Part shown: piece after piece, positions 25,497 to 27,144 of the stretch
Position numbering within the stretch: the stretch's first letter is position 1
Layout: every line of letters starts with the position of its first letter
NCBI RefSeq assembly: GCF_007004735.1
Contig: NZ_SSNL01000003.1
Coordinates: 248,001-312,000, forward strand
From: Salinigranum halophilum
GTDB taxonomy: Archaea; Halobacteriota; Halobacteria; Halobacteriales; Haloferacaceae
Length of the DNA stretch: 64,000 nucleotides
Direction: 5' to 3'
Made by a program: the position numbers and the translations under genes
Notes under the pieces: model-generated
What the model was told of the DNA's origin: nothing
What the model saw: only the letters and a program-made list of their open reading frames with translations
Database searches by the model: none

Positions 25497-25660
25497 TGTC
25501 GGGAATCACGCTGAAGACAGGGAGCGTATCAGTCGCACGACTTCGCCGACCCGGTACCAGGGGCAGCTAGGGCACGGACCGATAGATGCTGAGGGAAGGA
25601 CTCGTCACTCCTCGTCGTGGGGGCCACGCGTATACTTTTTACAAGCGGTATAGGAGAATG

Positions 25661-25681
25661 CCCCGGGGCTTGACCCTGGGG
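25661..25681 (+). repeat. Left-end hairpin of the TnpB element
   Basis: CCCCGG (25661-25666) pairs with CTGGGG (25676-25681), including one G-T pair, around the loop GGCTTGACC. The loop differs from that of the right-end hairpin at one base only, while the stem differs and still pairs. Confidence 0.75.
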
Positions 25682-25743
25682 TTGAATCCGATAGGCCGGG
25701 ATACAAACCATTAATTGAACAACTCTCTAATCAATAGATAGCG

Positions 25744-26970
25744 ATGGAATACAGTCACCGCTACCACGCTTACCCGACACAAGAGGTAGCGGCTGAACTG
25801 GAATACCATATTGACGTTCATCGCCAAGCGTACAACCACACTCGATACGAATACGAGAACGTTGACGCCGACGACATCGGCTCCGCGTACAAACACCACT
25901 ATCGACTCCCCGGCTGGAAAGAAGAGTTTCCCGTTTTCTCCGATGTTAACTCGAAGACTTTGCAACGAACCGTCACACGGTTCTATCAGAACCTTTCAAA
26001 CCTCTCCGACAAAAAGCAGAACGGGCACAAGGTTGGGAAACTCAAGTGGAAGTCTCCGACCGAGTACCAGAGTATGACGTATTCGCAGTCCGGTTTCGAA
26101 CTCAAAAACACGAGTGGCCGACATGCGACGTTAGAACTCTCCAAAGTCGGAGACATTCGGATTCGCTACCACCGCGAAATTCCCGAACGAGCAGACATCA
26201 AGGAAGTCACCATCAAGAAGGAGACCACTGGCGAATGGTTCGTCTCCTTCGGACTCGAAACCGACGACGCTGACTTACCCGAGAAACCCGATGTGGGGTC
26301 GCTCGATACGAGCAACAGCGTGGGTATCGACCTCGGCATCCTCAACTACATCCACACGAGCGATGGGAAGACGGTAGACTGGCTTGACCTCGAAGACGAG
26401 TACGAGAGACTCCGACGAGAACAACGTAAGTTGTCTCGTAAAGAGAAAGGGTCGAGAAACTACGAGAAACAACGCCAGAAGGTCGCCAAGGTCAAACGCC
26501 ACATTCATGGGAAGGTGCTGGACTATCAGCACAAAATCACGACGTGGCTAGTCAAAGAGTACGACGCTGTGTTCGTGGAAGACCTGAACGTTCAGAGTAT
26601 GCTTCAGGGCGACGGGAACGCTCGCAACAAACAGGATGCGGCGTGGCGGCAATTCATCACCTTGCTCGAATATAAGGGCGACCTGTACGGCACGCACGTC
26701 GTGCAGGTTGACGCGCAAGGAACGACCAAAGATTGTTCATCGTGTGGCGTGGAGACGGTGAAACCTCTCTGGGTGCGTGAGCATTCGTGCCCGTCGTGTG
26801 GGTTTGAGTGCGACCGTGACGCGAATGCGTCGTTGAACGTCTTGCAGAGAGGCTTTTCTGAACTAGGGCTGGGATGGCCCGAAGATACGCCCGTGGAGAC
26901 TGCGCTCCCTACGGACACGGATTCCGTGTCTGCAAAGCGCGTCGTAGAAACGGGAAGCCTCGGAGCTTGA
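25744..26970 (+). CDS. tnpB: RNA-guided endonuclease TnpB (IS200/IS605 family)
   Basis: An apparently intact protein of 408 residues. It has an N-terminal helix-turn-helix region, RuvC residues D196 (VGIDLGI), E279 (VFVEDLN) and D359 (CDRDANASLNV), and the zinc finger C331-x2-C334…C349-x2-C352. TnpB proteins are omega-RNA-guided DNA nucleases that help the element persist. The tail after the RuvC region ends near the right-end hairpin, whose transcript could form the 3' end of the guide scaffold. Base composition is AT-richer than the neighbouring genes, which indicates transfer. The ATG follows an AT-rich leader. Confidence 0.95.
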   Translation: MEYSHRYHAYPTQEVAAELEYHIDVHRQAYNHTRYEYENVDADDIGSAYKHHYRLPGWKEEFPVFSDVNSKTLQRTVTRFYQNLSNLSDKKQNGHKVGKLKWKSPTEYQSMTYSQSGFELKNTSGRHATLELSKVGDIRIRYHREIPERADIKEVTIKKETTGEWFVSFGLETDDADLPEKPDVGSLDTSNSVGIDLGILNYIHTSDGKTVDWLDLEDEYERLRREQRKLSRKEKGSRNYEKQRQKVAKVKRHIHGKVLDYQHKITTWLVKEYDAVFVEDLNVQSMLQGDGNARNKQDAAWRQFITLLEYKGDLYGTHVVQVDAQGTTKDCSSCGVETVKPLWVREHSCPSCGFECDRDANASLNVLQRGFSELGLGWPEDTPVETALPTDTDSVSAKRVVETGSLGA

Positions 26971-26979
26971 CCCCGAGGC
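26957..26979 (+). repeat. Right-end hairpin of the TnpB element / omega-RNA 3' scaffold
   Basis: GCCTCGG (26957-26963) pairs perfectly with CCGAGGC (26973-26979) around the loop AGCTTGACC and overlaps the last codons of tnpB. In related haloarchaeal elements, overlapping sense RNAs (sotRNA) cover this end, and the guide is read from the sequence just after the hairpin; here that would begin with GATTCACTG. Confidence 0.7.
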
Positions 26980-27062
26980 GATTCACTGTCCCTGTCGCGG
27001 TATCGTTTGCTTTCATCGTTGTACTCCTCGTTCGTAATCGTCCGAAGCAACTTATCAGCGGC

Positions 27063-27070
27063 TTTTTTTT
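27063..27070 (+). terminator. T8 run downstream of tnpB
   Basis: Eight consecutive T bases about 90 bases after the tnpB stop, in a GC-rich genome, make a plausible archaeal U-tract terminator for the tnpB/omega-RNA transcript. Confidence 0.45.
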
Positions 27071-27144
27071 ACCTTGTTCGAGGTCTTCTCCGGCATCAAA
27101 TTACAGTAGTCGTGAATGTATATATAAGTTTAGTCTCTCATAAA

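What the first reader, a model, noticed from the sequence alone, without database searches (positions are those of the whole stretch)
25643..26985. TnpB element with covarying hairpins at both ends
Seen: hairpins at 25661-25681 and 26957-26979 have loops GGCTTGACC and AGCTTGACC but different, still complementary stems. A TTAC stands 18 bases before the left hairpin, as in IS608-type left ends. Known: IS200/IS605 TnpA recognises such end hairpins, and the right end supplies the omega-RNA. Inference: a TnpA elsewhere can mobilise it; TTAC would be the target-adjacent motif, and the guide would start with GATTCACTG.
Basis: partly seen in the sequence, partly recalled or inferred. Interest (0 to 1): 0.6.

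Follow-up and report, generated by a model that had tools for sequence, protein, structure and literature searches.

The report
Haloarchaeal TnpB transposon with mapped ends

Summary
Both hairpins lie where stated, and only these two hairpins of their class in the window carry the GCTTGACC loop. The element is a tnpB-only IS200/IS605 (IS1341-type) transposon with an intact TnpB.

Its ends are fixed by 99.85%-identical copies at unrelated sites in two other haloarchaea, and by its insertion site: removing 25643-26986 restores a reading frame collinear with uninterrupted homologues. The end is therefore 26986, not 26985. GATTCAC is conserved element sequence, so the guide starts at 26987 (TGTCCCTGTCGCGG...), not "GATTCACTG". 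The target/TAM is TTTAC (core TTAC).

The 3' end of tnpB folds into a conserved omega-RNA scaffold with compensatory changes.

A TnpA-bearing element in the same genome has matching ends. In another genus tnpA elements carry this very hairpin, so mobilisation in trans is plausible but unproven.

Across the class the guide at the left-hairpin foot changes with the target as in IS608 pairing: GAATG/TTTAC, GAGTG/TCTAC, GAATA/TTTAT. Single-hairpin 47-48-nt derivatives occur in 113 of 391 genomes, as reported earlier for Haloquadratum (PMC3119063).

New member of a known kind; modest interest.

The parts
25638..25642 (+). Target motif TTTAC directly 5' of the element (predicted TAM; core TTAC)
   Evidence: Sequence. 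TTTAC also at the left end of copy 2 and of 35 of 80 named relatives, with none of the same guide type at TTTAT; shared boundary pentamer of near-identical copies
25643..26986 (+). Whole tnpB-only IS200/IS605 (IS1341-type) element, 1344 bp
   Evidence: Copy 2 in the same genome is also 1344 bp with unrelated flanks; near-identical copies in other genomes delimit TTTAC|...TTCAC|; joined flanks restore a frame collinear with uninterrupted homologues
25656..25660 (+). Left guide GAATG at the foot of the left hairpin (core AATG), predicted to pair with the target
   Evidence: Covaries with the target across relatives; pairing scheme of IS608 from PMC5934647
25661..25681 (+). Left-end hairpin, loop GGCTTGACC (CTTGA when the stem is extended)
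   Evidence: compensatory changes in L002 and L119
25744..26970 (+). tnpB, 408 aa, intact; RuvC residues D196, E279, D358 and a CxxC...CxxC zinc ribbon
   Evidence: ORF; PF07282 and PF01385; NF040570 guided_TnpB 270.8 bits against cut-off 100; aligned to ISDra2 TnpB 8bf8/8h1j E=7e-33 with the D/E/D triad aligned
26890..26986 (+). Predicted omega-RNA scaffold: helices 26890-26894/26950-26954, 26898-26906/26936-26943, 26912-26918/26926-26932, then the right hairpin; overlaps the 3' end of tnpB
   Evidence: 13-sequence alignment: 98.7% of cells paired, 5 pairs with changes on both sides, 0/500 shuffles reach the covariation score; partners slid by 1-3 columns collapse
26957..26979 (+). Right-end hairpin; its loop holds the tnpB stop codon TGA (26968-26970)
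26980..26986 (+). Conserved right terminus GATTCAC (right cleavage site TTCAC)
   Evidence: TTCAC ends the right end of the complete relatives listed, followed by unrelated flanks
26987..27006 (+). Predicted guide: TGTCCCTGTCGCGGTATCGT (first 16-20 nt of the flank)
   Evidence: Inference from the confirmed boundary and the ISDra2 rule that the last ~16 nt of the reRNA come from the flank (PMC8612924)
25605..25642 (-). 3' part of the interrupted small gene (...KKYTRGPHDEE, stop 25605-25607)
   Evidence: Rejoined frame matches L044, L046 and L047
26987..27096 (-). 5' part of the interrupted small gene (start codon at 27094-27096; an apparent frameshift at a run of Ts near 27063-27070)

Best explanation
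A tnpB-only IS200/IS605 (IS1341-type) insertion of 1344 bp at 25643-26986. It entered 3' of TTTAC inside a small minus-strand gene without a target duplication. Inferred working: a Y1 TnpA supplied in trans binds the two subterminal hairpins on single-stranded DNA, and the guide at the hairpin foot pairs with TTTAC at the left and at new targets, while TTCAC is cut at the right. The 3' end of tnpB plus the right hairpin is processed into an omega-RNA whose guide is the flank from 26987. TnpB with this RNA would cut the empty donor site TTTAC|TGTCCCTGTCGCGG and so favour retention of the element. Shown: boundaries, integrity of tnpB, conserved RNA fold, guide-target covariation. Inferred: mobilisation by TnpA, transcription, cleavage and TAM.
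For: Boundaries: second copy, same length, unrelated flanks; 99.85%-identical pairs in G014 and in G234 whose identity runs exactly from TTTAC to TTCAC; rejoined frame collinear with three uninterrupted homologues at 70-73%. TnpB intact with the catalytic triad. RNA fold with compensatory changes. Trans-acting TnpA: three Y1 genes in the genome; the C3 one lies in an element with TTTAC, 17-nt spacing, a GAGAA foot, TGAATCC after the left hairpin and a ...GTCAC end; tnpA elements with the same CTTGA hairpin elsewhere. Guide-target covariation.
Against: No tnpA in the element, and the two copies in this genome are only 90% identical, so no recent movement is shown here. The candidate own-genome TnpA element has a different stem-loop sequence (CCCACGAC...GTCGTGGG). 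No expression data. No Rfam match. The homologues at the empty site are 70-73% identical, not the same species.
Confidence: 0.9

Rival explanations
1. A fossil: the element no longer moves, and TnpB persists as a domesticated RNA-guided nuclease or regulator.
For: No tnpA inside; the two copies in the genome are 90% identical, so no recent transposition is visible here.
Against: Complete ends, intact catalytic TnpB, a compatible tnpA element in the genome, and near-identical multi-site copies of the same family in other genomes. The guide matches no second TTTAC-flanked site in this or three congeneric genomes within 3 mismatches apart from imperfect hits with a changed TAM.
Confidence: 0.25
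2. The element is moved by TnpB itself or another enzyme rather than by a Y1 TnpA in trans.
For: tnpB-type genes outnumber tnpA in this genome (16 to 3). Haloquadratum shows strain-specific insertions although nearly all its tnpA genes are broken (PMC3119063).
Against: The ends follow the IS608 TnpA scheme, including guide-target pairing, and tnpA-bearing elements share the hairpin. Published work finds tnpB dispensable for mobilisation (PMC8612924).
Confidence: 0.05
3. The hairpins are transcription terminators or chance palindromes unrelated to the element's ends.
For: Hairpins of this size occur 2.5 times per kb here.
Against: They sit at fixed distances from the boundaries in the complete copies, share the loop at both ends, covary, and the left one lies upstream of the gene.
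Confidence: 0.01

Closest known systems
IS608 (Helicobacter pylori), IS200/IS605 family
   Same: Insertion 3' of TTAC; subterminal hairpins; guide at the 5' foot (AAAG there, AATG here); the covarying positions here correspond to A+17:T-4 and, by recall, G+19:C-1
   Different: IS608 carries tnpA and tnpB; here only tnpB; T at -5 also conserved; right end TTCAC instead of TCAA
ISDra2 TnpB-reRNA (Deinococcus radiodurans)
   Same: TnpB fold and catalytic triad (E=7e-33); RNA from the 3' end of tnpB plus the right end, guide from the flank
   Different: TAM TTGAT there, TTTAC predicted here; ISDra2 also has tnpA
Haloarchaeal IS1341-type transposons and PATEs (Haloquadratum, Natronomonas; PMC3119063)
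   Same: tnpB-only elements with near-terminal palindromes and no target duplication; 52-bp terminal-only derivatives by core deletion
   Different: That paper covered few genomes; here the single-hairpin form is found in 113 of 391 genomes, with guide-target covariation
Sulfolobus islandicus SisTnpB1 (PMC10640517)
   Same: Archaeal TnpB; TAM equals the left cleavage motif (TTTAA, TTTAT for solo tnpB)
   Different: TTTAC here; different lineage and hairpins
Halobacterium salinarum omega-RNAs / sotRNAs (PMC12558985)
   Same: Haloarchaeal RNAs from the 3' end of IS1341-type tnpB with a right-end hairpin
   Different: Expression shown there; here only sequence

Membership tests
IS200/IS605 family, IS1341 (tnpB-only) group | tnpB gene of the RNA-guided TnpB family, catalytically intact | tested here: met
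IS200/IS605 family, IS1341 (tnpB-only) group | Subterminal hairpins, no terminal inverted repeats | tested here: met
IS200/IS605 family, IS1341 (tnpB-only) group | Insertion 3' of a fixed short motif without target duplication | tested here: met
   TTTAC
IS200/IS605 family, IS1341 (tnpB-only) group | Guide sequence at the hairpin foot pairs with the cleavage or target site | tested here: met
   Covariation at two positions; pairing itself inferred from IS608
IS200/IS605 family, autonomous member (IS605/IS608 type) | Own Y1 TnpA gene | tested here: not met
   Three tnpA genes in the genome, none within the element
TnpB-omega-RNA system | Structured RNA from the 3' end of tnpB and the right end | tested here: met
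   Conserved fold with compensatory changes; expression not testable here
TnpB-omega-RNA system | RNA-guided cleavage next to a TAM equal to the target motif | not testable with these tools
   Needs biochemistry

The most novel reading that the evidence does not exclude
The same end system serves a full size range: tnpA elements, tnpB-only elements, 370-400-bp PATEs and single-hairpin units of 47-48 nt. The single-hairpin units would be mobile in their own right, among the smallest transposable units known, mobilised by a TnpA in trans, and the guide would have been naturally rewritten at least twice (A-T to G-C at -4; G-C to A-T at -1), with the TnpB clade and its TAM following. Identical 48-nt units stand at unrelated sites in one genome (L196, L197), relatives lack them, and no tnpB was found within about 1.5 kb of those checked. 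Core deletion of larger elements after insertion is not excluded.
Probability: 0.45. Interest if true: 0.5.

Novelty: new member of a known kind. Interest (0 to 1): 0.35.

Why it matters
It gives an exactly delimited haloarchaeal TnpB element with a predicted scaffold, guide and TAM that can be tested at once. The family offers a natural experiment on retargeting: guide and target have changed together in sister TnpB clades (TTTAC and TTTAT), so one can ask whether TnpB's TAM specificity followed TnpA's target. It also shows that the tiny single-hairpin derivatives known from Haloquadratum are spread across the haloarchaea.

Tried and rejected
Rfam gave nothing. L004, a 109-nt right-end fragment that looked like an inserted omega-RNA copy, lies at a breakpoint in a transporter-like gene whose left part is gone: a remnant, not an insertion. 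Empty-site tests for the single-hairpin unit L033 were inconclusive because the intergenic region is too divergent; the sites in G104, G387 and G316 show relatives without the unit, but the alignment at the junction is loose. My first pairing scheme between guide and target (parallel, with a bulge) was dropped because the IS608 scheme (PMC5934647) explains both covarying positions without extra assumptions. The Fisher test ignores relatedness; one search shows that the -1 change maps to one split of the TnpB tree, so it counts as one event. A second site for the guide was sought and not found.

Full report
What was checked. The two hairpins and the TTAC are at the stated places. Hairpins of that size are common in this GC-rich window (160 on the + strand), but only these two of that class contain GCTTGACC. 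The left stem holds one G.T pair. The right stem, extended to 9 bp, has one A.C mismatch in this copy that other copies lack. The tnpB stop codon lies in the right loop.

Element boundaries. A second copy in the same genome (contig 8; 90% identical) is also 1344 bp, starts after TTTAC and ends in GATTCAC, with unrelated flanks. In both the identity covers exactly the pentamer TTTAC plus the element and stops after TTCAC. The window's own insertion site adds independent support: joining 25642 to 26987 gives a minus-strand frame ...ESKRYRDRDSKKYTRGPHDEE* that aligns without a gap at the junction to uninterrupted genes in G001, G003 and G028. An end at 26985 would break that frame. Because the target ends in AC and the element ends in AC, the exact cut could be shifted by up to two bases on sequence grounds alone; the family convention (cut 3' of TTAC) gives 25643-26986.

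The guide. By the ISDra2 rule (PMC8612924) the guide is the flank from 26987: TGTCCCTGTCGCGGTATCGT. The predicted natural target is the element's own empty site behind TTTAC. A search for TTTAC plus the first 14 guide bases with up to 3 mismatches in this genome and three congeners found only the element's own right junction (1 mismatch, TTCAC) and three hits with 3 mismatches and a changed TAM.

TnpB. 408 aa, over the cut-off of the guided_TnpB family, aligned to ISDra2 TnpB structures with the RuvC triad and zinc ribbon in place.

Omega-RNA. Thirteen related right ends share a fold made of three stacked helices within the tnpB coding end plus the right hairpin. 98.7% of cells are paired, five pairs change on both sides, and no shuffle reaches the covariation score (same fold from RNAalifold). 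Relatedness inflates such counts; three of the five pairs change together in one lineage (G209), one (columns 15/84) changes in four sequences, one in L147. Expression is known for Halobacterium relatives (PMC12558985), not for this element.

TnpA in trans. The genome has three Y1 genes. The element around the one at C3:671061 reads TTTAC|ACAAAATCGAGGAGAAA-hairpin-ATGAATCC at the left and GGGAA-hairpin-AGAAGTCAC at the right, closely like TTTAC|AAGCGGTATAGGAGAAT-hairpin-TTGAATCC and GGGAA-hairpin-GATTCAC here. This makes mobilisation in trans likely for the family; it is not shown for this copy.

Guide and target. PMC5934647 gives A+16:T-3 and A+17:T-4 as pairs between the left guide and the target of IS608; the partner of C-1 is G+19 by my recollection. 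In these haloarchaeal elements the guide at the foot of the left hairpin is GAATG with target TTTAC, GAGTG with TCTAC, and GAATA with TTTAT. Counts: in single-hairpin units, third guide base against target -4, 57 G-C and 20 A-T against 2 A-C and 1 G-T among 82 distinct strings; in tnpB elements of named genomes, 35 GAATG/TTTAC and 28 GAATA/TTTAT with no exchanged pair, 15 left unassigned (there the spacing was chosen by a score that treats C and T alike); a separate set of loci agrees. The target is host DNA, so each insertion samples it afresh, but the guide types are lineages: on the TnpB tree the -1 change is a single split, so each position supports one or few evolutionary events.

Single-hairpin units. 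A pattern for target, foot, one hairpin and right terminus hits 113 of 391 genomes in 50 of 86 genera, and the reversed control pattern hits none in the rows listed. Identical 48-nt units stand at unrelated sites within one genome (L196, L197), and relatives lack them at several sites. Such 52-bp terminal-only elements were described in Haloquadratum, where core deletion was shown and mobility suspected (PMC3119063). My data do not separate movement of the unit from deletion after insertion.

Verdict. An ordinary, intact member of a known family, with exact ends, a corrected guide and good support for the omega-RNA. The wider pattern of natural guide-target changes is the most useful part.

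Noticed in passing
L120, L121, L123, L125, L132, L133, L136 (right end); L124 (left and right ends): About 55-60 nt with two hairpins of their own, whose stems differ but stay complementary, are inserted in the end hairpin between GGGG and CTTGA; resembles SMR-A insertions of Haloquadratum but shorter.
   Followed up: partly
L004 (G000:C5:148241-148349): A 109-nt right-end fragment, 97% identical, about as long as the predicted omega-RNA, at the breakpoint of a transporter-like gene.
   Followed up: yes
L145, L247, L248: Two-hairpin elements of about 370-400 bp without tnpB, target TCTAC, foot GAGTG (PATE type).
   Followed up: partly
L316, L317, L329 and other TTTAT loci; L309, L320, L335: A sister TnpB clade inserts at TTTAT with foot GAATA; some members use a different hairpin (GACC-CACCG-TGGTC) and wider spacing.
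   Followed up: partly
window 27063-27070: A run of Ts with an apparent frameshift in the interrupted small gene; either the gene was already broken or it is a sequencing error.
   Followed up: no
G000 contig C8 (141 kb): Carries two of the three tnpA genes, the second copy of this element and several other tnpB genes; probably a plasmid rich in insertion sequences.
   Followed up: no
L002 left flank (G000:C8): The second copy lies 23 nt from the end of another repeat that occurs several more times in the genome.
   Followed up: no
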